Made by a program: the position numbers and the translations under genes
Notes under the pieces: model-generated
Database searches by the model: none
Seen by the model: the letters and a program-made list of their open reading frames with translations, nothing else
What the model was told of the DNA's origin: nothing
Shown here: positions 7,135-58,209 of the stretch, piece after piece
Layout: the number at the start of each line of letters is the position of its first letter
Numbering within the stretch: the first letter of the stretch is position 1
NCBI GenBank assembly: GCA_964017235.1
Contig: OZ024931.1
Coordinates: forward strand, 126,305,530 to 126,369,529
Direction of reading: 5' to 3'
DNA length: 64,000 bases
DNA from: Sabellastarte sp. h YS-2021
Lineage: Eukaryota > Annelida > Polychaeta > Sabellida > Sabellidae

Positions 7135-7182
7135 ATGCCAAGAAGTCCCAGAGGCAAAAAAAGTGTTGCACCTGCACAAGAT
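7135..7182 (+). CDS. Micro-exon A of host gene (48 nt)
   Basis: This is a 48-nt internal exon of an unidentified host gene. It follows TTTTTTCTTATGCAG and precedes GTAAGT. In the phase shared with the other exons it encodes MPRSPRGKKSVAPAQD, basic at the start and with the APxxD ending seen in the others. The leading Met is probably an ordinary codon, because a good acceptor precedes it directly; a translation start here cannot be excluded. Intron sequence on both sides (CTGTTGAAGCAGTG upstream) aligns with that around the exons at 9205 and 58162. Length is a multiple of three, so skipping it would not change the frame. No function can be named. Confidence 0.62.
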
Positions 7183-7200
7183 GTAAGTCTGAAGCACTAA

Positions 7201-8130
7201 TTTTTACCCCACAGCCCTCAAGGGCTGTCGGGATATTGTTTTCATCCATGGTGTCCAGATGGGTGGATGGGCAGGCGGTGTACAGATGGGGGCAGGTGGG
7301 TGGCAGAGAAAATCTTGTCTGGGCTGTATCTGGGCAACTGTAAGGTGTAGGAAGTTGATACTTGGTAGGGATATTGGTTAGGTGGTGTAGGTGTGCAACA
7401 TCATAGTGTGATCTTGATTTGACCTTTGACCTCGCCAAAGTGATGACCTATAAAATCTTGTCCGGGCTATATCTCAGAAACCATAAGATGTAGGAAGTTG
7501 ATGCATGGTAGGGACATTGGTTAGGGGGTGTAGGTGTCCAACGTCATGGTGTGACCTAGATTTGACCTTTGACCTTGCTGTAGTGACCTTGACCTATAAA
7601 ATCTTGTCCGGGCTATATCTCGGAAACCGTAAGATGTAGGAAGTTGACATGTGGCATGGACATTGGTTAGAAGGTGTAGGTGTTCCTCGTCATGATGTGA
7701 CCTTGATTTCACTTTTCACCTTACTGTAGTGACCTTGACCTATAAAATCTTGTCAAGACAATATCTCAGAAACTAAGGTGCAGAAAGTTAATACTTGACA
7801 GGGACATTGGTGGGGGATTGTGGTCCCACAATATCATGGTGTGACCTTATTTGACCTTTGACCTCGCCTTAGCGGCCTTGACCTGAAAAATCTTGTCTGG
7901 GCAATATCTTGGAAATGGCAAGGTGTAGTTGATATTTAGTAGGGACATTATTTAGCAGGTGTAGGTGTGCATTGTCATGGCGTGACCTTTATTTGACCTT
8001 TGACCTTTGAGCTATTTCTAGGATTCCATAAGGTGTATAAGGTTGACACTTGGTAGAGACATTGGTTAGGGGTTGTATGTAAATGTATGTGTGCATCATG
8101 GTGTGACCTTTTTGCTCTGGCAAAGTGTTT
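7201..8130 (+). mobile_element. Satellite-cored element, ~145-bp repeats (type 1)
   Basis: The element starts TTTTTACCCCACAGCCC with a hairpin (ACAGCCCTCAAGGGCTGT, 7211-7228). The core is about six tandem repeats of ~145 bp, marked by AAAATCTTGTCCGGGC at about 7310, 7454, 7599, 7745 and 7889 and by GATTTGACCTTTGACCT. The right boundary is soft (8110-8165). A shorter relative with about three repeats occurs at 16783-17310 in the same intron context, so the insertion predates duplication of the exon block. An inverted relative is at 56330-56980. No coding capacity is evident. Confidence 0.75.
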
Positions 8131-8653
8131 TCAGCTGTCATATTTGAGACAACTTTTTCTTATGACAAGAATATATGGATGGTGCAACTGATTATTATAT
8201 GCACATTTACATAATTATGCTATTTCCATTGACAGCTATTCTTCATTTAATAAATTTTACAGCTTCATATGGTTTTAGTTTACTGATTATTCCTGTCATC
8301 TTGCTGTTTAATTGTCTTGTTTTAGTACTTTATCTTTACATACATTTTCTTTCTCTGAGATGTTATTGTCTCTACTTAAACATTATTCTGACCTTTATAT
8401 AAGTGACACTGCGCTGAAAGTATTCCGGTCCTTGTACTGTCTCACTCCTTACATATATCATGGTGTTGAAAACTGTTTCCCCACGCTGTGGGGTACGGGC
8501 ATCTCTGACGCTATTTTTCTTGTTTGAACACCTGCCTGGCTTTCATTGTTGTAAACTCCTATCCCCAAATTTTACAAATATTTGCTGTCATTGTCCATAA
8601 GTGTCACAGAGCATGGATATCGTGGTTTTAGGCAGGAGTGATTATGATTTGAT
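8131..8653 (+). other. Ancestral intron block shared by all exon units
   Basis: From TTTCCATTGACAGCT near 8221 to CACGCTGTGGGGTACGGGC near 8500 this aligns, with divergence, to the same segment in every 2.3-kb unit of 29563-56140 (for example 33035-33300). It shows that exons 7135 and 9205 belong to the same duplicated block as the 36-nt exons. The short open frame across it is not conserved as protein. Confidence 0.7.
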
Positions 8654-8885
8654 TTATTTTTGTTTTACGTCGCGTTCAACATCCAGGGTCATAATTCTAC
8701 GGGTAGTTTACGGGTGGAGGAACCAGTGCATACTTGTTGGTCTAGATTCTGCTTTGAAAACCAACTGGCATCGGCAAGTAACTGCCAACTTTTCAACATG
8801 AAGTGCCCGGACCGATATTTGAACTGGCGACCTCAGAGGTTGAAGGTGAGCACTCTAACCGCTACACCACTGATCCCCCAGCGGT
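8654..8885 (-). mobile_element. tRNA-derived SINE, antisense
   Basis: Read on the minus strand, it begins with a tRNA-like head (GTGTAGCGGTTAGAGTGCTC as A box region). A degenerate B box AGTTCAAATAT follows, and it ends with TTGAACGCGACGTAAAACAA plus an ATAAAT tail. The same tail motif (GCGACGTAAAA) closes the SINEs at 55828 and 58297. Flanks show a short imperfect target duplication around ATTATGA. It is a nonautonomous, RNA polymerase III-type retroelement; the worn B box suggests an old copy. Confidence 0.8.
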
Positions 8886-9204
8886 AATTATGAAAACATC
8901 AGTCTTTACCCCACAGCCTAGTTATAATGTGTGAGTATTTTGTTCATGAAAGTGTATTTTGTGTATATTTATTAGTGGGTAGAGTGGTTAGTGCATGTGT
9001 ACTCCAACTCAAGCTTTCAATATTCAGGTTTTGGTGTTGTAAAGACTACCATCTGATCAAGCTACAAATCTCACATAAAGGGAAGAAGTCGGATGCTTTA
9101 TTGAGTTTATGTGCACATGTTAACAAATTCTGTTGAAGTAGTGTTGTTATTTTTTGCCATGAGCTGTACAGTTGACTGAGATTTTCATTTTATTTTTCCT
9201 GCAG
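8886..9204 (+). other. Intron preceding micro-exon B
   Basis: It starts with a fragment TCTTTACCCCACAGCCT, matching the left end of the type 1 satellite element. The final ~100 bases (ACAAATTCTGTTGAAGTAGTG onward) align with the upstream flanks of exons 7135 and 58162. It ends TATTTTTCCTGCAG, a strong acceptor. Confidence 0.6.
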
Positions 9205-9255
9205 GCTGGAACAAGCGCAAGGACTAGGAGCTATGCGCCTCATGATCCACCAGTT
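9205..9255 (+). CDS. Micro-exon B of host gene (51 nt)
   Basis: This is a 51-nt internal exon between TTTTTCCTGCAG and GTAAGTCTCC. In the common phase it encodes AGTSARTRSYAPHDPPV, alignable with AATSTDTLAPQV (A-x-T-S at the start, A-P near the end, Val last). The third reading phase contains a stop in this exon and in the one at 58162, which removes it as the shared phase. The donor-side intron (CGCTTCTTTCTCAAGAATAC, CCTGTGTCAATATG) is homologous to that of all 36-nt exons. The original distance to exon A, about 2.07 kb, is close to the 2.3-kb unit of the later array. Function unknown. Confidence 0.65.
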
Positions 9256-9574: not shown

Positions 9575-12500
9575 TATCTCCCGCCGGGCTTTAGCCCGGG
9601 AGGGAGATTATGAAATGATGCCTGTGTGCGTGCGTGTGTGTGCGTGCGTTAGTTAGTCACGCAGATTTCTCCAAAACTACTACAGCTACAGATTTTTTGT
9701 AAATTAATTGTCGAAATGAATTTTTACGCCCTTAAAATTTTTTGGGGTTTTAGGGACTTAGGCCTAAAGATAAGTGAGTAATAGCAATCTTACCTACTTG
9801 GAGCAAAGGGCTCATAACTCAAAAACGATTGCAGTTACAACTTTTTCTTCAAATATGTTGTTCAGCTACTTTGTCCTTGGCTATAAGATGGCATATAGTT
9901 TGGGGTCCCATTGCATGCCATAAGTGAGTAATAGCTATTTTCTTATTTGTAGCAAAATAACGACATAAGTAAATGTCAGATATCTTCAAGAGTATTAAAG
10001 TTAGGGAATTCTTTTCAAATATGTTATTCATCTACTTTTTGATAAGCTATCACATAGTAAAGTTTCAGATCTGTTGCACATTGGATAGCTGAGTAATAGC
10101 TACTTTGAAATTCTACAGTTGAGTAAATCCGTTGTAACTCCAAAACTAGTGCAGTTACAGTATTTTGCTAAAATATGTTGTTCAGCTACTTTTTCCTTAA
10201 GTATAAGATGGCATATAGTTTGGAGTTCTATTGCATGCCATAAGTGAGTAATAGCTATTTTTTTTATTTGTAGCAAAATAACGACATAAGTAAATATCAA
10301 ATATCTTCAAAAGTATTAAAGTTAGGGAATTCTTTTCAAATATGTTATTCATCTACTTTTTGATAAGCTATCACATAGTAAAGTTTCAGATCTGTTGCAC
10401 ACTGGACAGCTGAGTAAGAGCTACTTTAAAATTGTGGCTGTTGAGTAAATCCATTGTAACCCAGAAACGACTGCAGTTACAGTATTTTCCTAAAATAATT
10501 TGTTCAGCTACTTTTTCCTTAACTATAAGATAGCATATGGTTTGGGGTTCCATTGCATGTCATAAGCGAGCAAAAGCTATTTTCTTATTTGTAGCAAAAT
10601 TATGATGGAAATAAATGTCAAATACCTTCACAAGTACTAAACTTGGGCAGATCTTTTCATTTGTTATTCATCTAGTTTTTGATAAGCTTACTTTCCTGTG
10701 TCCTTTATATTTTTGTTGCTTTTGCAGATGTAGGTCAATAGCTAAGTGAGTAGATAGCTGAGTAATAGCTACTAAAATGAGTAAATGTCTTTTACCTCTA
10801 AAAGTATTACATATAGGCAATTTCTTCTAAATAAGTCATTCACCTACTTTTGGGTGATCTACCACATACTGAAGTTGCAGAACTGTAGCTTTTTGGATAA
10901 CTGAGTAATAGCTACTAAAATGATCAAATGTCTTTTATCTCTAAAAGTATTACAGGTAGGCAATTTCTTCTAAATAAGTTATTCACCTACTTTTGGGTGA
11001 TTGACCACATAGTGAAGTTGCAGAACTGTAGCTCATTGGATAGCTGAGTAATAGCTACAAAATGAGTAAATGTCTTCTATCTCTAAAAGTATTAAAGATA
11101 GGCAATTTCTCCTGAATAAGTCATTCACTTACTTTTGGGTGATCTACCACATAGTGAAGTTGCAGAACTGTAGCTCTTTGGATAGCTAATAAAATGAGTA
11201 AATGTCTTTTATCTCTAAAAAGTATTACAGGTAGGCAATTTCTTCTAAATAAGTCATTCACCTACTTTTGGGTGATGTACCACATAGTGAAGTTGCAGAA
11301 CTATAGCTCTTTGGATAGCTGAGTAATAGCTACTAAAATGAGTAAATGTCTTTTATCTCTAAAAGTATTACAGGTAGGCAATTTCTTCTGAATAAGTCGT
11401 TCACCTACTTTTGGGTGATCTACCACATATTGAAGTTGCAGAACTGTAGCTCTTTGGATAGCTGAGTAATAGCTACTAAAATGAGTAAATGTCTTTTATC
11501 TCTAAAAGTATTAAAGATAGGTAATTTCTTCTAAATAAGTCATTCACCTACTTTTGGGTGATCTACCACATAGTGAAGTTGCAGAACTGTAGCTCTTTGG
11601 ATAGCAGAGTAGTAGCTACTGAAATGAGTAAATGTCTTTTATCTCTAAAAGTATTACATATAGGCAATTTCTTCTAAATAAGTCATTCACCTACTTTTGG
11701 GTTATCTACCACATGGTGAAGTTGCAGAACTGTAGCTCTTTGGATAGCTGAGTAAAACCTACTAAAATGAGTAAATGTCTTTTATCTCTAAAAGTATTAC
11801 ATATAGGCAATTTCTTCTAAGTAAGTCATTCACCTACTTTTGGCAGATCTACCACATAGTGAAGTTGCAGAACTGTAGCTCTTTGGATAGCTGAGTAATA
11901 GCTACTAAAATGAGTAAATGTCTTTTATCTCTAAAAGTATTACAGGTAGGCAATTTCTTCTAAATAAGCCATTCACCTACTTTTGGCTGATCTACCACAT
12001 TGTGAAGTTGCAGAACTGTAGCTCTTTGGATAGCTGAGTAATAGCTACTAAAATGAGTAAATGTCTTTTATATCTAAAAGCATTACAGATAGGCAATTTC
12101 TTCTAAATAAGCCATTCACCTACTTTTGGCTGATCTACCACATAGTGAAGTTTCAGAACTGCAGCTCTTCGGATAGCTGAGTAATAGCTACTAAAATGAG
12201 TAAATGTCTTTTATCTCTAAAAGTATTTCATATAGGCAATTTCTTCTAAATAAGTCATTCACCTACTTTTGGGTGATCTACCACATGGTGAAGTTGCAGA
12301 GCTGTAGCTCTTTGAATAGCTGAGAAATAGCTACTAAAATGAGTAAATGTCTTTTATCTCTAAAAGTATTACAGGTAGGCAATGTCTTCTTAATAAGTCA
12401 TTCACCTACTTTTGGGTGATCTACCACATAGTAAAGTTGCAGAACTGTAGCTCTTTGGATAGCTGAGTAATAGCTACTAAAATGAGTTAATGTCTTTATC

Positions 12501-12903
12501 TCTAAAAGTATTACAGATAGGCAATTTCTTCTAAGTAAGTCATTCACCTACTTTTGGGTGATCTACCACATAGTGAAGTTGCAGAGCTGTAGCTCTTTGG
12601 GTAGCAGAGTAATAGCCACTAAAATAAGTATATGTATTCTATCTCTTAAAGTATTACAGGTAGGCAATTTCTTCTAAATATGTCCTTACCTACTTTGGGT
12701 TGATCTACATAATAAAGTTGCAGAGCTGTAGCTCTTTGGATGGCAGAGTAATAGCTAGTAAAATGAGTAAATGCCTTTTGTCTTTGAAAGTATTGAATGT
12801 AATCAAACATTAAACTTGTTGCCACTTCTACATGTGCCTCCATCTCACAAGAAAATTTATATTCCACTCTCTTTAGTACATCTAATTTATATGGCGGGAG
12901 ATA
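9575..12903 (+). mobile_element. Large satellite-cored element, 143-bp repeats
   Basis: This 3.3-kb element has ends TATCTCCCGCC (9575-9585) and GGCGGGAGATA (12893-12903), an 11-bp inverted pair. A hairpin at the left end is built from CCGGGCTTTAGCCCGG. After a short leader (GTGCGTGCGTGTGTGTGCG, then TTCTCCAAAACTACT) the first ~900 bases are repeats with a ~300-bp dimer period. From about 10720 to 12780 there are some 14 tandem copies of a 143-bp unit containing TAGCTGAGTAATAGCTACTA and CACCTACTTTTGGGTGATCT. Related cores lie at 49480-51340 (155 bp) and 60275-61740 (133 bp). No protein is encoded. Confidence 0.85.
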
Positions 12904-14977: not shown

Positions 14978-14990
14978 GGGGGGAGGAGAG

Positions 14991-16457: not shown

Positions 16458-16782
16458 CTTGGGAGACTATAAGTTTAAAATGATAATAAAAATTGGGGTA
16501 ATTGTGTGGTTAGTGTGTGTATATTTGGAGAATGATGGTCCCCGATAACGGGGAATGTGGGTGATAAAAGGGGATCACACGATAAAGTGGGCAGATTGTG
16601 TGTGTAATTATCTAATTATTTGGTCAAAAGGGGGTTAGAAAAATGAAAGTTGATTGTGGATTAAAGCTAGAAAAATGGCAGACGTAAAAGTGTTTTTTAA
16701 AACTGAAGATATTGGGTTACACGAATAATTTAGAAAAAACGGTAAAAATCCCTTTTTCACATGCCCCAAATTTATGACTTTG
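16458..16782. other. LINE copy C upstream region, no gene
   Basis: This probably includes the 5' untranslated region of LINE copy C (minus strand), running to a type 1 satellite element. A local near-palindrome, GATGGTCCCCGATAACGGGG, lies near 16533-16552. I recognise no coding sequence or exon. Confidence 0.4.
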
Positions 16783-23515: not shown

Positions 23516-23551
23516 CCAGCAACAAGTACAGATACATTGGCACCACAAGTC
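23516..23551 (+). CDS. 36-nt micro-exon, copy 1
   Basis: This is the first of nine copies of a 36-nt exon of the unidentified host gene. The acceptor is TTTATTTCTTCTTCAG and the donor GTAAGTTTT. It encodes PATSTDTLAPQV in the shared phase; the first codon is CCA (Pro), as in copy 6, where other copies have GCA (Ala). Twelve whole codons keep the frame whether the exon is used or skipped. Flanking introns were later hit by DIRS elements on both sides. Confidence 0.72.
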
Positions 23552-29562: not shown

Positions 29563-31600
29563 TGTGGGAGCTGAACAGATACAGAGGTAATAATCTGCAG
29601 CAGATGCAAACTTGTAAACCACTAGGCTATGAGCACTGGCTACACCAATTGCAAGTCTATTTGGAAGCTATGTGGAAATGGTGAGTCTGACTAGACTAAA
29701 ACTGTACTAGATATAACATCTATGTATGATATTTGTAGAAAATTTGAAGTCTGTAGCTTTAAGTTTAAGGAGACTTTAAGCTCTCTAAAATGACCAAATG
29801 GACTCGATATGTGAACTTTTTTCCATTTATAGCCCCTTAGTTCTCAAGCAATAAGGTTTTTCACAGGTTTCACATTTTTTGGCTGTATAACTTGGAAATG
29901 GCAAATCTGACAAGCCTCACACTATACTGGATATAACTTCTATATATGATCTTTATCTGCAAGGAATTTGGACTGTACTTTTAAGATCACCAAAAAGTGT
30001 GTGAAAATGACCATAGGAACTCATTTCAAATCTTGGCACTTCCTTTCTTCTGGATCTATATATTATGGGTCAACAATACCCTTCCCCAATCGATATTCAT
30101 ATTGTTTCATACTTTTATCTTGCTTGTAATTTCGAAACTAACAAAAACTGAGCTTATTGGCAAAATAAGTTGTTCATCTGTTTTTTTTCTTTATGTGGAA
30201 TAATACTGCAGAACATTTTTAATTTAATATGAAAGGTAGGTTGAAATAAAACACAAACTAGTTAATGAACTAATGATCATAGAATGTATGCGTCATTTGT
30301 ATCTGAAAAAAGTTAAGCACATACAAAAAAAAAAAATAGTATCAGATGACCGTACCCTACAGCCTAGGGAAATATTTTTAACCATAAGATATAGAAGTAG
30401 TGTATCATTACAAAGGATACCTTTAGAGCACTCTCAGATGTATAAAGGTCCAAATAATGTTTAAATAGAGAAAATAATGTCTAAGAGAAAGATAATGTAT
30501 GTAAGGAAGAAGTGTTAAAACAGGACAATTCAATAACAAGATGACAGCATCAATCAATAAACTGAACATTACAATGCTCTTTATCTACATCTGGCATGGC
30601 CTAATTATGGTTTCGGCAGTTCCAAACATTGAATTTTTTTTGGTCTCTGGCTGGAGTGTGGCGGCGTACGAATAAGCATTCAGTCCCACATGGTAAGCTG
30701 GTAGCTTATAAAAGCTACATTTAAGTAATCAAATTTTTCAATTTCCATTGACAGCTTCTATCCAATTAATAAATTGTAGAGCTTTAAAATTTTCAGTTTA
30801 CTGATTAATGCTGTCATCTTGCTATTGAATTGTCTTGTTTTTATCTTTACATACATTTTCTCTACTTAAACATTATTTGGACCTTTACATAACTGACACT
30901 GCTCTGAAATTATCCAGATCTTTGTACTGTTTCACTACTTCTATGTCTCATGGCAATGAAAACTATATCAGTAGGCTGTGGGCATCTGTGATGCTATTTT
31001 TTACTTAATATTACTCGGAAAGTGATGATCAGATCTTCAGGAAATTATGTGGGTAAGGTGTTGCAATAGGAAGAAGTGATTGTATCTCTGGAAAGATCTG
31101 GATTATATTTTGGATATCATATATTTCTGCATTTTCTACAAACACTGATGAGTGGAGTTGTGCACTCCACAAGGGCTTTCTATTTGTAGCAAAAATGTCA
31201 CAACAAGGCAGAATAATTTAACCGCAAATAAAGCAACGGAAATGTCATATTTTCTGCTATCAGTTGTTCAGTAGACTGAGATTTATATAAAATGTTTATT
31301 TCTTCTTCAGGCAGCAACAAGTACAGATACATTGGCACCACAAGTCGTAAGTTTTCATCACTTCTTTCTCATCAATACTCTGCCTGTGTCAATATGGTTC
31401 TGTGTAATCAAAATGTTCTATGTGATGTTTTGTTGCTGGTCCTGGAGTTTTATGATTTTTAACAGAAGATTATAACACAACCATGGTCTTGTTCTATCTG
31501 TTTATTTCATTGTAATAAAGTAAAATCAAGGTCTGAGTGGGGATTTTGTGTCCCCTTCGACAACCAGGGTCATATTGGGATAAACCCTTTGCATTTTCCA
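29563..31600 (+). repeat. Tandem unit U1 (2.04 kb)
   Basis: This is the first unit of the array that carries the 36-nt exon. Its order is: 5' half of the antisense SINE, an AT-rich intron (CTAGACTAAAACTGTACTAG), a right-end DIRS relic at about 30641-30743, the shared intron block, the exon at 31311-31346, donor-side intron, and the 3' half of the SINE. It has the simple form AATACCCTTCCCCAATCGAT near 30075, lacking the left arm of the palindrome found in U2-U5 and U8. Confidence 0.9.
31311..31346 (+). CDS. 36-nt micro-exon, copy 2
   Basis: It encodes AATSTDTLAPQV. The acceptor TTTATTTCTTCTTCAG and donor GTAAGTTTTC are identical to those of copies 3-5. It lies in unit U1. The exon sequence equals copies 3, 4 and 5 base for base. 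Confidence 0.75.
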
Positions 31601-32116
31601 TTTGTGGGAGCTGAACAGATACAGAGGTAATAATCTGCAGCAGATGCAAACTTGTAAACCACTAGGCTATGAGCACTGGCTACACCAATTGCAAGTCTAT
31701 TTGGAAGCTATGTGGAAATGGTGAGTCTGACTAGACTAAAACTGTACTAGATATAACATCTATGTATGATATTTGTGGAAAATTTGAAGTCTGTAGCTTT
31801 AAGTTTGAGGAGACTTTAAGCTCTCTAAAATGACCAAATGGAGTCGATATGTGAACTTTTTTCCATTTATAGCCCCTTAGTTCTCAAGTAATAAGGTTTT
31901 TCACAGGTTTCACATTTTGTGGTGGTATAACTTGGAAATGGCAAATCTGACAAGCCTCACACTATACTGGATATAACTTCTATATATGATCTTTATCTGC
32001 AGGGAATTTGGACTGTACTTTTAAGATCACCAAAAAGTGTGTGAAAATGACCATAGGAACTCATTTCAAATCTTGGCACTTCCTTTCTTCTGGATCTATA
32101 TATTATGGGTCAACAG

Positions 32117-32695
32117 TACACTACTTCTATATCTTATGGTTAAAAATATTTCCCTAGGCTGTGGGATACGGTCATCTGATACTGTTTTTTTTTTTTTTTT
32201 GTATGTGCTTAACTTTTTCAGATACAAATGACGCATACATTCTATGATCATTAGTTCATTAACTAGATTTGTTTTATGTTCAACTTACCTTTCATATTAA
32301 ATTAAAAATGTTCTGCAGTATTATTCCACATAAAGAAAAAAAAAACAGATGAACAACTTATTTTGCCAAAAAGCTCAGTTTTTGTTAGTTTTTGTTTGTT
32401 TACTTTTATCTTGCTTGTAATTTCGAAACTAACAAAAACTGAGCTTTTTGGCAAAATAAGTTGTTCATCTGTTTTTTTTTCTTTATGTGGAATAATACTG
32501 CAGAACATTTTTAATTTAATATGAAAGGTAAGTTGAACATAAAACACAAACTAGTTAATGAACTAATGATCATAGAATGTATGCATCATTTGTATCTGAA
32601 AAAGTTAAGCACATACAAAAAAAAAAATAGTATCAGATGACCGTACCCCACAGCCTAGGGAAATATTTTTAACCATAAGATATAGAAGTAGTGTA
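32117..32695. repeat. Palindrome in U2 (arms ~270 bp)
   Basis: The left arm 32117-32388 is the near-perfect reverse complement of the right arm 32429-32695, with a 40-nt spacer. The outer ends read TACACTACTTCTATATC and GATATAGAAGTAGTGTA. Units U1, U6, U7 and U9 have only the right arm. Confidence 0.95.
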
Positions 32696-33600
32696 TCATT
32701 ACAAAGGATACCTTTAGAGCACTCTCAGATGTATAAAGGTCCAAATAATGTTTAAGTAGAGAAAAAAATGTCTAAGAGAAAGATAATGTATGTAAGTAAG
32801 AAGTGTTGAAACAGGACAATTCAATAACAAGATGACAGCATCAATCAATAAACTGAACATTACAATACTCTTTATCTACATCTGGCATGGCCTAATTATG
32901 GTTTCGGCAGTTCCAAACATTCATTTTTTTTGGTCTTTGGCTGGAGTGCGGCGGCCTACGAAAAAGCATTCAGTCCCACATGGTAAGCTGGTAGCTTATA
33001 AAAGCTACATTTAAGTAATCAAATTTTTCAATTTCCATTGACAGCTTCTATCCAATTAATAAATTGTAGAGCTTTATAATTTTCAGTTTACTGATTAATG
33101 CTGTCATCTTGCTATTGAATTGTCTTGTTTTTATCTTTACATACATTTTCTCTACTTAAACATTATTTGGACCTTTACGTAACTGACACTGCTCTGAAAT
33201 TATCCAGATCTTTGTACTGTTTCACTACTTCTATGTCTCATGGCAATGAAAACTATATCAGTAGGCTGTGGGCATCTGTGATGCTATTTTTTACTTAATA
33301 TTACTCGGAAAGTGATGATCAGATCTTCAGGAAATTATGTGGGTAAGGTGTTGCAATAGGAAGAAGTGATTGTATCTCTGGAAAGATCTGGATTATATTT
33401 TGGATATCACATATTTCTGCATTTTCTACAAACACTGATGAGTGGAGTTGTGCACTCCACAAGGGCTTTCTATTTGTAGCAAAAATGTCACAACAAGGCA
33501 GAATAATTTAACCGCAAATAAAGCAACGGAAATGTCATATTTTCTGCTATCAGTTGTTCAGTAGACTGAGATTTATATAAAATGTTTATTTCTTCTTCAG

Positions 33601-33636
33601 GCAGCAACAAGTACAGATACATTGGCACCACAAGTC
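33601..33636 (+). CDS. 36-nt micro-exon, copy 3
   Basis: It encodes AATSTDTLAPQV and lies in unit U2, 2,290 bp after copy 2. Splice signals are the same. Strict conservation here reflects recent duplication and is not by itself evidence of selection. Confidence 0.75.
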
Positions 33637-34406
33637 GTAAGTTTTCATCACTTCTTTCTCATCAATACTCTGCCTGTGTCAATATGGTTCTGTGTAATCA
33701 AAATGTTCTATGTGATGTTTTGTTGCTGGTCCTGGAGTTTTATGATTTTTAGCAGCAGATTATAACACAACCATGGTCTTGTTCTATCTGTTTATTTCAT
33801 TGTAATAAAGTAAAATCAAGGTCTGAGTGGGGATTTTGTGTCCCCTTCGACAACCAGGGTCATATTGGGATAAACCCTTTGCATTTTCCATTTGTGGGAG
33901 CTGAACAGATACAGAAGTAATAATCTGCAGCAGATGCAAACTTGTAAACCACTAGGCTATGAGCACTGGCTACACCAATTGCAAGTCTATTTGGAAGCTA
34001 TGTGGAAATGGTGAGTCTGACTAGACTAAAACTGTACTAGATATAACATCTATGTATGATATTTGTGGAAAATTTGAAGTCTGTAGCTTTAAGTTTAAGG
34101 AGACTTTAAGCTCTCTAAAATGACCAAATGGAGTCGATATGTGAACTTTTTTCCATTTATAGCCCCTTAGTTATCAAGGAATAAGGTTTTTCACAGGTTT
34201 CACATTTTTTGGCGGTATAACTTGGAAATGGCAAATCTGACAAGCCTCACACTATACTGGATATAACTTCTATATATGATCTTTATCTGCAAGGAATTTG
34301 GACTGTACTTTTAAGATCACCAAAAAGTGTGTGAAAATGACCATAGGAACTCATTTCAAATCTTGGCACTTCCTTTCTTCTGGATCTATATATTATGGGT
34401 CAACAG

Positions 34407-34991
34407 TACACTACTTCTATATCTTATGGTTAAAAATATTTCCCTAGGCTGTGGGGTACGGTCATCTGATACTGTTTTTTTTTTTTTTGTATGTGCTTAA
34501 CTTTTTCAGATACAAATGACGCATACATTCTATGATCATTAGTTCATTAACTAGTTTTGTTTTATGTTCAACTTACCTTTCATATTAAATTAAAAATGTT
34601 CTGCAGTATTATTCCACATAAAGAAAAAAAAAACAAACAGATGAACAACTTATTTTGCCAAAAAGCTCAGTTTTTGTTAGTTTTTGTTTGTTTACTTTTA
34701 TCTTGCTTGTAATTTCGAAACTAACAAAAACTGAGCTTTTTGGCAAAATAAGTTGTTCATCTGTTTTTTTTTTCTTTATGTGGAATAATACTGCAGAACA
34801 TTTTTAATTTAATATGAAAGGTAAGTTGAACATAAAACACAAACTAGTTAATGAACTAATGATCATAGAATGTATGCGTCATTTGTATCTGAAAAAGTTA
34901 AGCACATACAAAAAAAAAAAAAATAGTATCAGATGACCGTACCCCACAGCCTAGGGAAATATTTTTAACCATAAGATATAGAAGTAGTGTA
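34407..34991. repeat. Palindrome in U3 (arms ~272 bp)
   Basis: The left arm is 34407-34680, the spacer 34681-34720 and the right arm 34721-34991. Arms differ mainly in the length of the T/A runs. As RNA this intron would fold into a long hairpin. Confidence 0.95.
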
Positions 34992-35896
34992 TCATTACAA
35001 AGGATACCTTTAGAGCACTCTCAGATGTATAAAGGTCCAAATAATGTTTAAGTAGAGAAAAAAATGTCTAAGAGAAAGATAATGTATGTAAGGAAGAAGT
35101 GTTAAAACAGGACAATTCAGTAACAAGATGACAGCATCAATCAATAAACTGAACATTACAATACTCTTTATCTACATCTGGCATGGCCTAATTATGGTTT
35201 TGGCAGTTCCAAACATTCATTTTTTTTGGTCTTTGGCTGGAGTGCGGCGGCCTACGAAAAAGCATTCAGTCCCACATGGTAAGCTGGTAGCTTATAAAAG
35301 CTACATTTAAGTAATCAAATTTTTCAATTTCCATTGACAGCTTCTATCCAATTAATAAATTGTAGAGCTTTATAATTTTCAGTTTACTGATTAATGCTGT
35401 CATCTTGCTATTGAATTGTCTTGTTTTTATCTTTACATACATTTTCTCTACTTAAACATTATTTGGACCTTTACATAACTGACACTGCTCTGAAATTATC
35501 CAGATCTTTGTACTGTTTCACTACTTCTATGTCTCATGGCAATGAAAACTATATCAGTAGGCTGTGGGCATCTGTGATGCTATTTTTTACTTAATATTAC
35601 TCGGAAAGTGATGATCAGATCTTCAGGAAATTATGTGGGTAAGGTGTTGCAATAGGAAGAAGTGATTGTATCTCTGGAAAGATCTGGATTATATTTTGGA
35701 TATCACATATTTCTGCATTTTCTACAAACACTGATGAGTGGAGTTGTGCACTCCACAAGGGCTTTCTATTTGTAGCAAAAATGTCACAACAAGGCAGAAT
35801 AATTTAACCGCAAATAAAGCAACGGAAATGTGATATTTTCTGCTATCAGTTGTTCAGTAGACTGAGATTTATATAAAATGTTTATTTCTTCTTCAG

Positions 35897-35932
35897 GCAG
35901 CAACAAGTACAGATACATTGGCACCACAAGTC
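35897..35932 (+). CDS. 36-nt micro-exon, copy 4
   Basis: It encodes AATSTDTLAPQV, in unit U3. It is identical to copies 2, 3 and 5, with the same acceptor and donor. Confidence 0.75.
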
Positions 35933-36702
35933 GTAAGTTTTCATCACTTCTTTCTCATCAATACCCTGCCTGTGTCAATATGGTTCTGTGTAATCAAAAT
36001 GTTCTATGTGATGTTTTGTTGCTGGTCCTGGAGTTTTATGATTTTTAGCAGCAGATTATAACACAACCATGGTCTTGTTCTATCTGTTTATTTCATTGTA
36101 ATAAAGTAAAATCAAGGTCTGAGTGGGGATTTTGTGTCCCCTTCGACAACCAGGGTCATATTGGGATAAACCCTTTGCATTTTCCATTTGTGGGAGCTGA
36201 ACAGATACAGAAGTAATAATCTGCAGCAGATGCAAACTTGTAAACCACTAGGCTATGAGCACTGGCTACACCAATTGCAAGTCTATTTGGAAGCTATGTG
36301 GAAATGGTGAGTCTGACTAGACTAAAACTGTACTAGATATAACATCTATGTATGATATTTGTAGAAAATTTGAAGTCTGTAGCTTTAAGTTTAAGGAGAC
36401 TTTAAGCTCTCTAAAATGACCAAATGGAGTCGATATGTGAACTTTTTTCCATTTATAGCCCCTTAGTTATCAAGGAATAAGGTTTTTCACAGGTTTCACA
36501 TTTTTTGGCGGTATAACTTGGAAATGGCAAATCTGACAAGCCTCACACTATACTGGATATAACTTCTATATATGATCTTTATCTGCAAGGAATTTGGACT
36601 GTACTTTTAAGATCACCAAAAAGTGTGTGAAAATGACCATAGGAACTCATTTCAAATCTTGGCACTTCCTTTCTTCTGGATCTATATATTATGGGTCAAC
36701 AG

Positions 36703-37288
36703 TACACTACTTCTATATCTTATGGTTAAAAATATTTCCCTAGGCTGTGGGGTACGGTCATCTGATACTGTTTTTTTTTTTTTTGTATGTGCTTAACTTT
36801 TTCAGATACAAATGACGCATACATTCTATGATCATTAGTTCATTAACTAGTTTTGTTTTATGTTCAACTTACCTTTCATATTAAATTAAAAATGTTCTGC
36901 AGTATTATTCCACATAAAGAAAAAAAAAACAAACAGATGAACAACTTATTTTGCCAAAAAGCTCAGTTTTTGTTAGTTTTTGTTTGTTTACTTTTATCTT
37001 GCTTGTAATTTCGAAACTAACAAAAACTGAGCTTTTTGGCAAAATAAGTTGTTCATCTGTTTTTTTTTTTCTTTATGTGGAATAATACTGCAGAACATTT
37101 TTAATTTAATATGAAAGGTAAGTTGAACATAAAACACAAACTAGTTAATGAACTAATGATCATAGAATGTATGCGTCATTTGTATCTGAAAAAGTTAAGC
37201 ACATACAAAAAAAAAAAAAATAGTATCAGATGACCGTACCCCACAGCCTAGGGAAATATTTTTAACCATAAGATATAGAAGTAGTGTA
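36703..37288. repeat. Palindrome in U4
   Basis: It has the same structure as the palindrome in U3, with about 270-bp arms and a 40-nt spacer, and slightly longer T/A runs. Confidence 0.95.
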
Positions 37289-38193
37289 TCATTACAAAGG
37301 ATACCTTTAGAGCACTCTCAGATGTATAAAGGTCCAAATAATGTTTAAGTAGAGAAAAAAATGTCTAAGAGAAAGATAATGTATGTAAGGAAGAAGTGTT
37401 AAAACAGGACAATTCAGTAACAAGATGACAGCATCAATCAATAAACTGAACATTACAATACTCTTTATCTACATCTGGCATGGCCTAATTATGGTTTTGG
37501 CAGTTCCAAACATTCATTTTTTTTGGTCTTTGGCTGGAGTGCGGCGGCCTACGAAAAAGCATTCAGTCCCACATGGTAAGCTGGTAGCTTATAAAAGCTA
37601 CATTTAAGTAATCAAATTTTTCAATTTCCATTGACAGCTTCTATCCAATTAATAAATTGTAGAGCTTTATAATTTTCAGTTTACTGATTAATGCTGTCAT
37701 CTTGCTATTGAATTGTCTTGTTTTTATCTTTACATACATTTTCTCTACTTAAACATTATTTGGACCTTTACATAACTGACACTGCTCTGAAATTATCCAG
37801 ATCTTTGTACTGTTTCACTACTTCTATGTCTCATGGCAATGAAAACTATATCAGTAGGCTGTGGGCATCTGTGATGCTATTTTTTACTTAATATTACTCG
37901 GAAAGTGATGATCAGATCTTCAGGAAATTATGTGGGTAAGGTGTTGCAATAGGAAGAAGTGATTGTATCTCTGGAAAGATCTGGATTATATTTTGGATAT
38001 CACATATTTCTGCATTTTCTACAAACACTGATGAGTGGAGTTGTGCACTCCACAAGGGCTTTCTATTTGTAGCAAAAATGTCACAACAAGGCAGAATAAT
38101 TTAACCGCAAATAAAGCAACGGAAATGTGATATTTTCTGCTATCAGTTGTTCAGTAGACTGAGATTTATATAAAATGTTTATTTCTTCTTCAG

Positions 38194-38229
38194 GCAGCAA
38201 CAAGTACAGATACATTGGCACCACAAGTC
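38194..38229 (+). CDS. 36-nt micro-exon, copy 5
   Basis: It encodes AATSTDTLAPQV, in unit U4. It is the last of four identical consecutive copies (2-5). Confidence 0.75.
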
Positions 38230-38999
38230 GTAAGTTTTCATCACTTCTTTCTCATCAATACCCTGCCTGTGTCAATATGGTTCTGTGTAATCAAAATGTT
38301 CTATGTGATGTTTTGTTGCTGGTCCTGGAGTTTTATGATTTTTAGCAGCAGATTATAACACAACCATGGTCTTGTTCTATCTGTTTATTTCATTGTAATA
38401 AAGTAAAATCAAGGTCTGAGTGGGGATTTTGTGTCCCCTTCGACAACCAGGGTCATATTGGGATAAACCCTTTGCATTTTCCATTTGTGGGAGCTGAACA
38501 GATACAGAAGTAATAATCTGCAGCAGATGCAAACTTGTAAACCACTAGGCTATGAGCACTGGCTACACCAATTGCAAGTCTATTTGGAAGCTATGTGGAA
38601 ATGGTGAGTCTGACTAGACTAAAACTGTACTAGATATAACATCTATGTATGATATTTGTGGAAAATTTGAAGTCTGTAGCTTTAAGTTTAAGGAGACTTT
38701 AAGCTCTCTAAAATGACCAAATGGAGTCGATATGTGAACTTTTTTCCATTTATAGCCCCTTAGTTATCAAGGAATAAGGTTTTTCACAGGTTTCACATTT
38801 TTTGGCGGTATAACTTGGAAATGGCAAATCTGACAAGCCTCACACTATACTGGATATAACTTCTATATATGATCTTTATCTGCAGGGAATTTGGACTGTA
38901 CTTTTAAGATCACCAAAAAGTGTGTGAAAATGACCATAGGAACTCATTTCAAATCTTGGCACTTCCTTTCTTCTGGATCTATATATTATGGGTCAACAG

Positions 39000-39579
39000 T
39001 ACACTACTTCTATATCTTATGGTTAAAAATATTTCCCTAGGCTGTGGGGTACGGTCATCTGATACTGTTTTTTTTTTTTTTGTATGTGCTTAACTTTTTC
39101 AGATACAAATGACGCATACATTCTATGATCATTAGTTCATTAACTAGTTTTGTTTTATGTTCAACTTACCTTTCATATTAAATTAAAAATGTTCTGCAGT
39201 ATTATTCCACATAAAGAAAAAAAAACCAAACAGATGAACAACTTATTTTGCCAAAAAGCTCAGTTTTTGTTAGTTTTTGTTTGTTTACTTTTATCTTGCT
39301 TGTAATTTCGAAACTAACAAAAACTGAGCTTTTTGGCAAAATAAGTTGTTCATCTGTTTTTTTTTTCCTTTATGTGGAATAATACTGCAGAACATTTTTA
39401 ATTTAATATGAAAGGTAAGTTGAACATAAAACACAAACTAGTTAATGAACTAATGATCATAGAATGTATGCGTCATTTGTATCTGAAAAAGTTAAGCACA
39501 TACAAAAAAAATAGTATCAGATGACCGTACCCCACAGCCTAGGGAAATATTTTTAACCATAAGATATAGAAGTAGTGTA
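39000..39579. repeat. Palindrome in U5
   Basis: It is the same ~580-bp palindrome as in U2-U4, with a few more arm differences, for example AAAAACCAAACAG in the left arm. Confidence 0.93.
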
Positions 39580-42060: not shown

Positions 42061-42096
42061 CCAGCAACAAGTACAGATACATTGGCACCACAAGTT
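42061..42096 (+). CDS. 36-nt micro-exon, copy 6
   Basis: It encodes PATSTDTLAPQV. The first codon is CCA (Pro), as in copy 1, and the last codon is GTT instead of GTC, a synonymous change in the assumed phase that supports that phase. It lies in unit U5. Splice sites are intact. Confidence 0.73.
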
Positions 42097-46148: not shown

Positions 46149-46184
46149 GCAGCAACAAGTACAGATACATTGGCACCACAAGAC
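46149..46184 (+). CDS. 36-nt micro-exon, copy 7
   Basis: It encodes AATSTDTLAPQD. The last codon is GAC (Asp) where copies 1-6 have Val, directly before the GTAAGT donor. Copies 8 and 9 share it, as does exon A (AQD). It lies in unit U6. Confidence 0.74.
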
Positions 46185-48042: not shown

Positions 48043-48078
48043 GCAGCAACAAGTGCAGATACATTGGCACCACAAGAC
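48043..48078 (+). CDS. 36-nt micro-exon, copy 8
   Basis: It encodes AATSADTLAPQD: ACA has become GCA (Thr to Ala) at codon 5 and the last codon is Asp. It lies in unit U7, with intact splice sites. It is the most diverged of the nine copies, yet still open and in frame. Confidence 0.74.
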
Positions 48079-48208: not shown

Positions 48209-48590
48209 TAGTGCTGTGACATCGCTTCAATTACTGAGTTCGACGTTTGGTGTCTGTACAAGCTTGCGAACTTCGGTTTAGTTCGATCTTCGAAACAACG
48301 TTTACAAAACCAGTTAAAATGCAGAAATTTCACATAAAATCTTGTCACTTCATTGAAAATATAGCAAAAATATAAAATCCATATATATTTTAATAAATTC
48401 TGCCATATTTTCAACAAAAGAAACAAGTTTTATAGATGGGCGAAAATAGGATCCGTTGGGATGTTGTATGATATTGGAGATTTCTAAACGTTTTGCAAAG
48501 TCCGAATTTCAGACGTTTGAAACCGAACACCGAATTCGGGGCAGTAAACAAGCGAATTATCGAAGTTCTCGAATCATCGTCACAGCACTA
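48209..48590. mobile_element. Nonautonomous hAT DNA transposon (382 bp)
   Basis: Its ends are TAGTGCTGTGAC and GTCACAGCACTA, flanked by an exact 8-bp target duplication ATTATAAC (48201-48208 and 48591-48598). The uninterrupted site is seen in the other units (GATTATAACACAACC). An 8-bp duplication with TAG-type termini is the hAT signature. The interior is AT-rich with no transposase. Confidence 0.93.
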
Positions 48591-52000: not shown

Positions 52001-52445
52001 AAGGTCAAACAAGGATAGCCAAACTTAAAAAGTGCCTATGACTCACTTATTATTGGTCCGAGAGGTTTGGGATGGTAAACCATCCTAAATTCTTTGGCTG
52101 GGAATCTTTTGGTATGGTCAGATTTGACCTTTGGACCCCTTCTTCATGGTCGAACGAGGATATTGCATTTATAGTATTTCTTTAAATATTTGTAACCTAC
52201 TTTTTACACTTAAACAATTACCTTGTTACTTTATTTCATAATACCATTTGCAGGGCACAACTTTTTTGTCCTTTTCTTCTGTCAGCTTCGGAATATCTTT
52301 CGAACATGCTGTTCAGTTACCATTTACTGTATTTCTGTACAGCCCTTTCCCTGATAATTATGCTTTCCTCTCATTATCACCATCACAAATCAAAAACATT
52401 CAGTCAGCTGACACAGTGCCCGTTCACGGGCACTCTCCTCTTGTT
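49039..52445 (+). mobile_element. Satellite-cored element with two different cores (3.4 kb)
   Basis: The left end is a hairpin, ATGTCAGCTGAC with GTCAGCTGACAT. The right end carries GTCAGCTGACA and a second hairpin, AGTGCCCGTTCACGGGCACT, then CTCCTCTTGTT. A GC-rich leader (GTACGCGCACGCGTACGCGT) and TTCTCCAAAACTAC resemble those of 9575-12903. The first core, about 49480-51340, has an exact 155-bp period (TAGCTGAGTAATAGCTAC at 49746, 49901, 50056, 50211, 50366 and 50521). The second, about 51345-52160, is the ~147-bp family of 1440-2310. Ends fit a Helentron-type nonautonomous element; this is inference. Confidence 0.82.
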
Positions 52446-52641: not shown

Positions 52642-53220
52642 TACACTACTTCTATATCTTATGGTCAAAAATATTTCCCTAGGCTGTGGGGTACGGTCAT
52701 CTGATACTATTTTTTTCTGTATGTGCTTAACTTTTTCAGATACAAATGACGCATACATTCTATGATCATTAGTTCATTAACTAGTTTGTGTTTTATGTTC
52801 AACTTACCTTTCATATTAAATTAAAAATGTTCTGCAATATTATTCCACATAAAGAAAAAAAAACAGATGAACAACTTATTTTGCCAAAAAGCTCAGTTTT
52901 TGTTAGTTTTTGTTTGTTTACTTTTATCTTGCTTGTAATTTCGAAACTAACAAAAACTGAGCTTTTTGGCAAAATAAGTTGTTCATCTGTTTTTTTTTCT
53001 TTATGTGGAATAATACTGCAGAACATTTTTAATTTAATATGAAAGGTAGGTTGAACATAAAACACAAACTAGTTAATGAACTAATGATCATAGAATGTAT
53101 GCATCATTTGTATCTGAAAAAGTTAAGCACATACAAAAAAAAAAAAAAAAAATAGTATCAGATGACCGTACCCCACAGCCTAGGGAAATATTTTTAACCA
53201 TAAGATATAGAAGTAGTGTA
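52642..53220. repeat. Palindrome in U8
   Basis: It has the same arms and spacer as in U2-U5. It lies about 13 kb beyond the last palindrome-bearing unit, with two simple-form units in between. Confidence 0.94.
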
Positions 53221-54552: not shown

Positions 54553-54588
54553 GCAGCAACAAGTACAGATACATTGGCACCACAAGAC
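54553..54588 (+). CDS. 36-nt micro-exon, copy 9
   Basis: It encodes AATSTDTLAPQD, identical to copy 7. It is in unit U8 and is the last 36-nt copy in the window. Acceptor TTTCTTCTTCAG and donor GTAAGTTTTC are intact. Confidence 0.74.
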
Positions 54589-54843: not shown

Positions 54844-56140
54844 TTTGTGTGAGCTGAACAGATACAGAGGTAATAATCTGCGGCAGATGCAAACTTGTAA
54901 ACCACTAGGCTATGAGCACTGGCCACACCAATTGCAAGTCTGTTTGGAAGCTATTTGGAAATGGTGAGTCTCACTAGACTAAAACTGTACTAGATATAAC
55001 ATCTATGTATAATATTTGTGGAAGATTTGAAGTCTGTAGCTTTAAGTTTAAGGAGACTTTAAGCTCTCTAAAAGACCAAATGGACTCGATATGTGAATTT
55101 TTTTCCATTTATAGCCCCTTAGTTCTCAAGCAATAAGGTTTTTCACAGGTTTCACATTTTTTGGCTGTATAACTTGGAAATGGCAAATCTGACAAGCCTC
55201 ACACTATACTGGATATAACTTCTATATATGATCTTTATCTGCAGGGAATTTGGACTGTACTTTTAAGATCACCAAAAAGTGTGTGAAAATGACCATAGGA
55301 ACTCATTTCAAATCTTGGCACTTCCTTTCTTCTGGATCTATATATTATGGGTCAACAATACCCTTCCCCAATCGATATTCATATTGTTTCATACTTTTAT
55401 CTTGCTTGTAATTTCGAAACTAACAAAAACTGAGCTTTTTGGCAAAATAAGTTGTTCATCTGTTTTTTTTTCTTTATGTGAAATAATACTGCAGAACATT
55501 TTTAATTTAATATGAAAGGTAAGTTGAACATAAAACACAAACTAGTTAATGAACTAATGATCATAGAATGTATGCGTCATTTGTATCTGAAAAAAGTTAA
55601 GCACATACAAAAAAAAAATAGTATCAGATGACCGTACCCCACAACCTAGGGAAATAGTTTTAACCATAAGATAGAGAAGTAGTGTATAATTACAAAGGAT
55701 ACCTTTAGAGCACTCTCAGTTGTATAAAGGTTCAAATAATGTTTAAATAGAGAAAATAATGTCTAAGAGAAAAATAATGTATATAAAGAAGAAGTATTAA
55801 AACAGGACAATTCAATAACAAGATGACGGGGGGCCACGGTGGCAGAGTGGTAACACTCTCGCCTCCCACGTCTGTGGCCGGGGTTCGATCCCCGTCATGG
55901 CCGTAAGTGAGAAAGCTGGTAGTTACTTGCCGTTGGTCGGCAGTTTACAGTACACAACCCTAGCGAACTCTATGTACTGGTTTCCTCTGCCCTTCCAACT
56001 ACCCGTTGTGATATGACCTGTACAGTGTTGAAAGCGACGTAAAAACCCCAAATAAATAAATAACAAGATGACAGCATTAATCAATAAACTGAACATTACA
56101 ATACTCTTTATCTACATCTGGCATGACCTAATTATGGTTT
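54844..56140 (+). repeat. Tandem unit U9, truncated, without exon
   Basis: This is the left half of the unit, in the simple non-palindromic form (AATACCCTTCCCCAATCGAT near 55359). It ends at ATTATGGTTT (56140), after which unique sequence follows, so the DIRS relic, intron block and exon are missing. A SINE is inserted at 55828-56058. It marks the right edge of the array. Confidence 0.9.
55828..56058 (+). mobile_element. tRNA-derived SINE with 14-bp target duplication
   Basis: It has a tRNA-like head with A box TGGCAGAGTGG and B box GGTTCGATCCC, a body (GCAGTTTACAGTACACAACC), and the tail GAAAGCGACGTAAAAACCCC followed by AAATAAATA. The duplication AATAACAAGATGAC flanks it exactly (55814-55827, 56059-56072). 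Little decay, so a recent insertion; a close relative is at 58297. Confidence 0.95.
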
Positions 56141-56980: not shown

Positions 56981-57072
56981 ATGAATGCATTATCTCCACT
57001 ACAATCAAACTTTGTATGAAGGCAGGTTGGGATACCAAGCTGTTTCAAGAGAGGAGTTGATGAAAGCAGTCT

Positions 57073-57192
57073 TTTTATTGCATAAAAATGTACTCGCATA
57101 ATCCCAACATTGTCAATGTCTTTGACCAAACGGTAGGTCACATAAACAGTTGGGATTATGTAAGTATTTTTATTTATAAAAATTCCAATTAC
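57073..57192. mobile_element. Possible miniature DIRS-end relic
   Basis: TTTTTATTGCATAAAAATG at the left resembles DIRS left ends (TTTATTGCG). TTATTTATAAAAATTCCAATT at the right resembles their right ends, and inner CATAATCCCAAC / GTTGGGATTATG forms a 12-bp inverted pair. It would be a third family reduced to its two ends. No coding part. The resemblance is short and may be chance. Confidence 0.35.
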
Positions 57193-57322
57193 AGTAAAAT
57201 TAACCAAATTCATTTTCTTTATTCATGTCTGCATGACTATATTTAGCTTTTTAAGCACAAACTTTTCCAATGCTCATGCTTCTAGGAATCACTTTTTTGA
57301 CCGCTTCATTGTACTATCTCTG

Positions 57323-57476
57323 GAGGTCCTCAGTGGCCTAGTGGTTAGCAAGTTTGGCATCTAATCATAGGCTGTCACCTCTGTGGGTTCGAGTCCCACA
57401 AGTGGCAATTCTGAGGACCTGTCCCAATATGACCCTGGCTGTTGAACGGGACGTAAAACCCCAACTTTGACTTTGC
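57323..57476 (+). mobile_element. tRNA-derived SINE, second family, 10-bp target duplication
   Basis: The head has A box TGGCCTAGTGG and a perfect B box GGTTCGAGTCC. The body is short (GACCTGTCCCAATATGACCC) and it ends CGGGACGTAAAACCCCAA. ACTATCTCTG flanks it (57313-57322, 57477-57486). This is the same family as the antisense SINE present in every 2.3-kb unit and split by DIRS fossil 2. Confidence 0.92.
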
Positions 57477-58161
57477 ACTATCTCTGATGGCTTTGCAGCT
57501 CATGCGAGTAGACCAAAACTGGACCCACTAAAACCCCTTTTGGTCTTGTGGAACTGGAATAAAACTTCTTTTGGCCTTGTTCTACTGTAAAACAGACCAG
57601 TTTCTTGAGATACAAGTCAATCTGCTAAGATCAAATCACAAAATTTTACGATATTTCATCTCTATCAATATATCATGTATTATTGTGTCATGGCATCATG
57701 TAAACTACTTGCCAAATGGGTAATTTTATTTTAGCACATTTTGCTTTATTTGTCACAGACTTTATTTTGAGGTGTATTAATTTGATTGCAAGAATTAACA
57801 AATCTATTCAGATTCCATTCTCAAGTCATAAACTTAAAAAATAGGATTCTTTTTCTTTTGGTATCAATCAAATGCTTTAATCATAATATTCTAAAATGGA
57901 ACACTGTGCATTGAATGCCGACTTGTCTTATGCACAGTTTAAGAATCCTATAGTAAAATATGGTTATATTTACCAAAAGAATTCAAAATAAATAGCTGGG
58001 AAATTTCTTTATAATTATAGGCATCCAAGTTTACTTGATGGGATGTAACATTCTTCAACTGAGTTTAAGTACATATGTTCACAAATTCTATTGAAGTGGT
58101 GTTGTTGTTTTCTACTATCAGTTACACAGTAGATTGACATTTGTATTTATTTCTCCTGCAG
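57477..58161 (+). other. Intron preceding micro-exon C
   Basis: It is mostly AT-rich with no recognised content. The last ~110 bases (TTCACAAATTCTATTGAAGTGG onward) align with the upstream flanks of exons A and B. It ends TTTATTTCTCCTGCAG. Confidence 0.6.
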
Positions 58162-58209
58162 GCTGACGAGACTCAAAGAAGGGATGCGGCTCCCCAAGAC
58201 TCACCAGCT
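58162..58209 (+). CDS. Micro-exon C of host gene (48 nt)
   Basis: This is a 48-nt internal exon between TTTCTCCTGCAG and GTAAGTCCAC. It encodes ADETQRRDAAPQDSPA, sharing the A-x-x-T start and APQD ending with the 36-nt exons. The third phase has a stop. The donor-side intron (ACACTTCTTTCTC, CTGTGTCAAT) is homologous to that of the other exons. It resembles exons A and B in length and intron sequence more than the 36-nt copies, so the young array lies between older members. Function unknown; the gene evidently continues beyond the window. Confidence 0.65.

What the first reader, a model, noticed from the sequence alone, without database searches (positions are those of the whole stretch)
7135..58209. 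A host gene built from tandem, frame-neutral micro-exons
Twelve short segments share a pyrimidine-rich acceptor, a GTAAGT donor, lengths that are all multiples of three (48, 51, nine of 36, 48) and one phase open throughout. They encode related A/P/T/S-rich peptides (AGTSARTRSYAPHDPPV, AATSTDTLAPQV, ADETQRRDAAPQDSPA). Introns around them are homologous on both sides. Any combination of exons stays in frame, so copy number and splicing can both vary the protein. The nearest known analogue is the schistosome micro-exon gene (MEG) design. I know of no described gene with this array in a probable mollusc; that is a limit of my knowledge, not a search result.
Basis: partly seen in the sequence, partly recalled or inferred. 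Interest (0 to 1): 0.9.

Follow-up and report, generated by a model that had tools for sequence, protein, structure and literature searches.

The report
Tandemly copied short exons, one gene
A stretch of animal-type DNA appears to hold part of one gene in which a single short exon was copied until twelve stand in a row without breaking the reading frame, and many of its introns carry a long hairpin; this is a known style of gene evolution in an unidentified gene.

Summary
All twelve segments are at the stated places, each with CAG acceptor, GTAAGT donor, length 48, 51, 36 (nine times) or 48, and an open phase-0 frame. They are not twelve independent cases: one ancestral exon with its splice flanks gave four diverged classes, and the 36-nt class then spread as nine copies of a recent unit of about 2.3 kb. 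Intactness of the nine proves little; a neutral simulation leaves all nine intact in 64% of runs. The coding case rests on the four classes: all lengths divide by three, similarity is strongest in phase 0 (z 4.9 against 2.1 and 1.5), and mismatches rise from first to third codon position.

So 30 of 36 pairs of these introns are complementary over more than 250 nt.

Expression, splicing, gene identity and mollusc origin are untested. The likeness to micro-exon genes (MEGs) is one of design, not shown membership.

The parts
7135..7182 (+). e1, 48-nt exon, MPRSPRGKKSVAPAQD; has an acceptor homologous to the others, so an exon should lie upstream; its ATG may be the start codon or an internal Met
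9205..9255 (+). e2, 51-nt exon, AGTSARTRSYAPHDPPV
23516..23551 (+). a1, 36-nt exon, PATSTDTLAPQV; its duplicated unit is split (23063-23808 and 29553-30316) by a region bounded by 126-nt inverted repeats
31311..31346 (+). a2, 36-nt exon, AATSTDTLAPQV
33601..33636 (+). a3, 36-nt exon, AATSTDTLAPQV
35897..35932 (+). a4, 36-nt exon, AATSTDTLAPQV
38194..38229 (+). a5, 36-nt exon, AATSTDTLAPQV
42061..42096 (+). a6, 36-nt exon, PATSTDTLAPQV; unit interrupted near 40252-41849 and 42799-44881
46149..46184 (+). a7, 36-nt exon, AATSTDTLAPQD
48043..48078 (+). a8, 36-nt exon, AATSADTLAPQD; unit interrupted near 48209-48590 and 49039-52440 (the latter holds the 155-nt and 146-nt tandem arrays)
54553..54588 (+). 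a9, 36-nt exon, AATSTDTLAPQD
58162..58209 (+). e12, 48-nt exon, ADETQRRDAAPQDSPA; last homologous copy before the window ends at 64000
30310..39495 (+). four uninterrupted units of about 2.3 kb carrying a2 to a5 (30310-32608, 32602-34901, 34895-37198, 37192-39495); a2, a4 and a5 are 98.5, 99.5 and 99.4% identical to the a3 unit used as query
34407..34991 (.). 585-nt foldback sequence in the a3-a4 intron, arms near 275 nt and a short loop; full-length copies also at 32117-32695, 36703-37288, 39000-39579, 52642-53220
30102..30404 (.). single-arm form in the a1-a2 intron; also 44970-45267, 46980-47288 and 55384-55686; all four share the same sequence where the full form has its left arm

Best explanation
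Part of one protein-coding eukaryotic gene on the + strand whose low-complexity, probably disordered A/T/P/D/S-rich segment is encoded by twelve tandemly duplicated symmetric (0-0) exons. An ancestral exon with its splice flanks was duplicated several times long ago (e1, e2, ancestor of the array, e12); more recently the 36-nt exon was amplified as nine units of about 2.3 kb, most simply by unequal crossing-over. Because every exon is a whole number of codons in phase 0, gaining, losing or skipping any of them changes only the number of 12-17-residue repeats, so the segment would act as a linker whose length can vary by copy number and possibly by splicing. Shown: positions, homology, lengths, splice consensus, frame, unit duplication, intronic foldbacks. 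Inferred: transcription, inclusion in mRNA, alternative splicing, disorder, linker function.
For: 12 of 12 exons with CAG, GTAAGT and a multiple of three. One profile finds these twelve, all on +, well apart from the next hit. The four classes have lengths 36, 48, 48 and 51, while their intron flanks carry gaps of 1, 6, 7 and 10. Phase-0 peptide similarity z 4.88 (0 of 1000 shuffles as high) against 2.07 (34 of 1000) and 1.45 (91 of 1000) in the other frames; mismatches by codon position 14/61, 18/61, 26/61 at one gap setting, with the same order at the three others tried (a7 stood for the array). Shared core A-P-[QH]-[DV] written with different third bases (visible; chosen after looking; e1 has one codon more in it). 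CTTCTTTCTC begins at +15 in 11 of 12, and TGAGATTT or TGACATTT begins 27 to 34 nt before the exon in 12 of 12 (motifs chosen after looking, and nine copies are one observation).
Against: No RNA, no homologue, no conserved domain (Pfam best FAM47 E 0.078, below its cut-off; no PDB sequence at E up to 1). Nine intact copies are expected by chance at this age: P 0.64. Within the array 4 of 36 exon sites vary, three of the four changing the residue, against 16 of 339 flank sites (Fisher P 0.11). Between classes exon identity (60-77%) barely exceeds shuffled sequence (59-63%) and in five of six pairs lies below the upstream flank. The six pairs are not independent, 50 of 233 aligned exon columns fell out of phase at the first setting, and frame 1 is open as well. 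A second AG four bases into each array exon would break the frame if used. No gene start or end is in view.
Confidence: 0.75

Rival explanations
1. Real gene, but only e1, e2, e12 and perhaps one array exon are used; the extra array copies are recent intronic segmental duplications, mostly skipped and neutral. (This overlaps with the best explanation, which does not require all nine to be used.)
For: Array flanks are on average 1% from their consensus and intactness is expected without selection (P 0.64); exon sites vary at least as much as the flanks (4/36 against 16/339); mobile-element frames and tandem arrays crowd the region.
Against: All nine keep AG and GTAAGT, and flanks -40 to -1 and +1 to +31 show no variable site (bounds chosen after looking).
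Confidence: 0.3
2. Micro-exon gene (MEG) of the schistosome kind: a secreted, fast-evolving protein diversified by alternative splicing of symmetric short exons.
For: All exons are multiples of three within 6-81 bp, 8 of 11 introns under 5 kb, exons not more conserved than introns, mobile elements in the introns; MEG traits from passages of PMC10526429 and PMC4350168.
Against: No hydrophobic stretch in the exons seen (best 12-residue mean hydropathy 0.16, best 19-residue 0.54); modal exon 36, not 15; no search against schistosome proteins possible; flatworm origin not indicated by any search.
Confidence: 0.07
3. Chance splice-like signals in a non-coding tandem repeat, or a degraded gene.
For: Frame 1 is open as well; short segments are often open; exon similarity is near shuffled level in several class pairs.
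Against: Lengths of four diverged classes all divide by three; phase-0 z 4.9; 0 strict candidates elsewhere in the window.
Confidence: 0.12

Closest known systems
Titin PEVK exon arrays
   Same: Many short repetitive exons encoding a low-complexity segment; exon number changes by duplication, in part linked to LINE elements; often missed by annotation tools (passages of PMC6469411).
   Different: Composition here is A/T/P/D/S, not P/E/V/K; nine exons nearly identical; no titin domain in the window's scanned frames. PEVK exon phase recalled as 1, not checked.
Schistosome micro-exon genes (MEGs)
   Same: Symmetric short exons, long introns, enrichment in mobile elements, fast-evolving coding parts (passages of PMC10526429 and PMC4350168); one MEG family shows an internal duplication with a repeated exon-length pattern (passage of PMC5825161).
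   Different: MEGs encode secreted proteins with a signal peptide and mostly 15-bp exons; here no signal peptide is seen and exons are 36-51 nt, nine of them near-identical copies.
Tandem exon duplications with intronic stem-loops (mutually exclusive exons)
   Same: Exon and adjacent intron duplicated together; a duplicated stem-loop arm gives competing base-pairing partners (passage of PMC9013439). A duplicated, alternatively spliced exon is reported for oyster alternative oxidase (PMC5589949, seen in the listing only).
   Different: Here the introns hold a whole foldback or one arm, so pairing is not one docking site against many selectors; mutually exclusive use is not shown.
Neuronal micro-exons (3-27 nt; recalled)
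   Same: Frame-preserving small cassette exons.
   Different: Exons here are 36-51 nt and arrayed as duplicates.

Membership tests
Tandemly duplicated symmetric-exon array (general kind) | Exons homologous with shared intron flanks, same strand | tested here: met
Tandemly duplicated symmetric-exon array (general kind) | Every exon 0-0 symmetric, any subset in frame | tested here: met
   12 of 12 lengths divide by three, phase 0 best supported, provided that the first AG is used in the array exons
Tandemly duplicated symmetric-exon array (general kind) | Exons joined in mRNA | not testable with these tools
   no RNA data available
Schistosome MEG | Most coding sequence in short symmetric exons (6-81 bp, mostly 15) | tested here: inconclusive
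   12 of 12 within range, none of 15; the whole gene is not in view (passages of PMC10526429)
Schistosome MEG | N-terminal signal peptide | tested here: inconclusive
   no hydrophobic stretch in the exons seen; an upstream exon may exist
Schistosome MEG | Alternative splicing of central exons | not testable with these tools
   no RNA data
Schistosome MEG | Homology to a MEG family or flatworm origin | not testable with these tools
   no animal genome or protein collection; no PDB match at E up to 1, no Pfam match above cut-off
Titin PEVK | PEVK-rich composition | tested here: not met
   joined peptide of 157: A 35, T 29, P 19, D 17, S 14, V 8, K 2, E 1

The most novel reading that the evidence does not exclude
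The intronic foldbacks are part of the device: all nine introns downstream of an array exon carry the sequence (five full hairpins, four single arms), so 30 of 36 pairs of these introns are complementary over 268-594 nt at about 92-97%. Pairing between introns could loop out any run of exons, giving frame-safe skipping of a variable number of repeats or circular RNAs, while the palindromes also promote the unit duplications that change exon number.
Probability: 0.12. Interest if true: 0.68.

Novelty: new member of a known kind. Interest (0 to 1): 0.42.

Why it matters
If transcribed, this is a case in which exon amplification is recent enough that the copies are still mostly 94-100% identical with introns included, so copy-number variation between individuals and the effect of intronic hairpins on splicing could be tested directly. 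Such exons are easily missed by annotation software, as reported for titin PEVK exons (passages of PMC6469411), so similar arrays may be under-reported.

Tried and rejected
Rejected: a mobile element carrying the exon. The exon profile finds the twelve, all on +, and otherwise a fragment at E 3e-4 and hits above E 0.5, although parts of the introns are dispersed repeats. Rejected as evidence: intactness of the nine copies (P 0.64); exon-over-intron conservation (absent). Left open: a promoter upstream of e1. TGACGTCA at 6158 looked promoter-like, but the word occurs 4 times in the window against 0.34 expected, so it is not specific to that place; the bacterial promoter scan is not informative here. 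An earlier crude scan is superseded.

Led nowhere: own-genome search (none held); viral contigs by exon DNA (0), by flank pattern (0) and by protein (20 pattern stretches, none confirmed); flank pattern in genome contigs (0; a prokaryote collection, so little was to be expected); Pfam and PDB with the joined peptide; tRNA and Rfam gathering search (0 and 0). Ten paper searches were read as listings with the start of abstracts; five papers were read as passages only. Among the rows listed I saw no mollusc gene of this design, judged by title and abstract start; PMC5589949 (oyster alternative oxidase, a duplicated exon) is the nearest. Searches listed only a part of their results, most subscription journals are absent, and no claim of absence from print is made.
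Full report
OBSERVATION. Each is preceded by CAG and followed by GTAAGT; the lengths are 48, 51, nine of 36 and 48; and the joined phase-0 frame is open for 157 residues. Frame 1 is open as well; frame 2 has stops. The array peptides are AATSTDTLAPQV (4 of 9), PATSTDTLAPQV (2), AATSTDTLAPQD (2) and AATSADTLAPQD (1). The eleven introns are 1,858 to 14,260 nt; 8 of 11 are under 5 kb. In all nine array copies a second AG stands four bases inside the exon (CAGGCAG or CAGCCAG); its use would give 32 nt and break the frame.

HOW MANY INDEPENDENT CASES. All twelve are homologous. A profile made of one member of each of four classes (e1, e2, a3, e12) finds the twelve with E 6e-45 or better, all on the + strand; the four match by construction. 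Next come a fragment at 16783-16855 with E 3e-4 and hits above E 0.5. The nine 36-nt exons lie in copies of one unit of about 2.3 kb. The uninterrupted units of a2, a4 and a5 are 98.5, 99.5 and 99.4% identical to that of a3; pieces of the others longer than 200 nt are 93.6-98.4% identical, and one piece of 114 nt is 79%. Insertions split the units of a1, a6 and a8. In the co-linear flanks of 339 nt the copies differ from one another at 0 to 9 places. So there are four informative exons, not twelve.

IS IT CODING. Within the array, 4 of 36 exon sites vary against 16 of 339 flank sites (Fisher P 0.11), and three of the four changes alter the residue. A neutral simulation at the flank rate (5,000 runs; loss of AG, loss of GT or a stop counted as damage) damages on average 0.43 of nine copies and none in 64% of runs, so intact copies prove nothing. 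Between the four classes the evidence is better: lengths 48, 51, 36, 48 although the DNA is diverged; phase-0 peptide similarity z 4.88 (0 of 1000 shuffles) against 2.07 (34 of 1000) and 1.45 (91 of 1000); mismatches at codon positions one, two, three of 14/61, 18/61, 26/61, with the same order at four of four gap settings (with a7 standing for the array). A core A-P-[QH]-[DV] is kept with differing third bases; this was chosen after looking. The caveats are that the six pairs are not independent and that 43-59 aligned exon columns per setting were out of phase.

SPLICE FLANKS. Pairwise identity between classes is 68-83% in the 60 nt upstream, 60-77% in the exon and 58-81% downstream, where shuffled sequence gives 59-63%. 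So the exon is not the most conserved part. TGAGATTT or TGACATTT begins 27-34 nt before the exon in 12 of 12, and CTTCTTTCTC begins 15 nt after it in 11 of 12, e1 lacking it. This may be splice-signal constraint, fast exon change, or both.

INTRONIC FOLDBACKS. The a3-a4 intron holds 34407-34991, a sequence that is nearly its own reverse complement. As RNA, 34380-35010 folds with -445 kcal/mol against a mean of -112 for 20 shuffles; its halves differ by one base, a 1-nt gap and a 4-nt gap before the loop. Full-length copies are at 32117-32695, 36703-37288, 39000-39579 and 52642-53220. Copies with one long arm are at 30102-30404, 44970-45267, 46980-47288 and 55384-55686. That covers all nine introns downstream of an array exon. 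In the four single-arm copies the place of the left arm is taken by the same short sequence (4 of 4), which suggests that the single-arm state came first and that one inverted duplication made the palindrome, later copied with the units; this is inference. Counted from the table, 30 of 36 pairs of these introns share 268-594 nt of inverted complementarity at about 92-97%; the six others are pairs of single-arm introns, five with none and one with 65 nt. Inverted repeats in flanking introns are discussed in connection with circular RNA (abstract starts in the listing), and duplicated intronic stem-loops have been proposed to lead to exclusive exon choice (passage of PMC9013439). A hairpin inside one intron would probably form first, so pairing between introns is only a possibility.

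SURROUNDINGS. Frames of LINE type lie on the - strand at 2493-4277 and 13367-16466 (Pfam RVT_1 E 1.7e-34 and 2.8e-32; endonuclease E 6.7e-10). Two regions bounded by inverted repeats, 17471-23020 and 23823-29518, hold interrupted frames; of the four scanned, one has a weak RNase H match (E 7e-4, below cut-off), one a match to an unrelated family at E 0.048 below its cut-off and two none. I read these regions as DIRS-like from memory. Tandem arrays fill, among other places, 9815-12794, 49625-52162 and 59834-61743. The profile finds no further homologous exon in the window, so the gene's ends lie outside it or in unrelated exons not recognised here.

COMPARISON. The design resembles that of titin PEVK arrays and, in symmetry, of schistosome MEGs. 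Membership in MEGs is not shown: no signal peptide in the exons seen, exon sizes differ, homology not testable. PEVK membership fails on composition. The mollusc origin was not tested by any search.

VERDICT. A real structure, most likely a tandemly duplicated symmetric-exon segment of an unidentified eukaryotic gene: a new member of a known kind, with intronic foldbacks as an untested twist.

Noticed in passing
32117-32695, 34407-34991, 36703-37288, 39000-39579, 52642-53220: 579-586-nt near-perfect palindromes inside the array introns; the single-arm forms in the four other introns downstream of array exons share one junction sequence.
   Followed up: partly
17471-23020 and 23823-29518: Two regions bounded by 174-nt and 126-nt inverted repeats with interrupted frames, DIRS-like by my reading from memory (weak RNase H match in one scanned frame).
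   Followed up: partly
2493-4277 and 13367-16466 (- strand): LINE-type retroelement frames (reverse transcriptase in both, endonuclease in the second).
   Followed up: partly
6158-6165, 17621-17628, 18656-18663, 22863-22870: TGACGTCA occurs four times, 0.34 expected; two of the four lie in the two terminal inverted repeats of the 17471-23020 region.
   Followed up: no
10753-12794, 49625-51345, 60270-61743: Tandem arrays with periods 143, 155 and 133 nt; members of the 155-nt and 133-nt arrays match members of the 143-nt or the neighbouring 321-nt array at about 60-72%.
   Followed up: no
63150-64000: Possibly the start of a further mobile element, with an open frame near the window's end (read by eye).
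   Followed up: no
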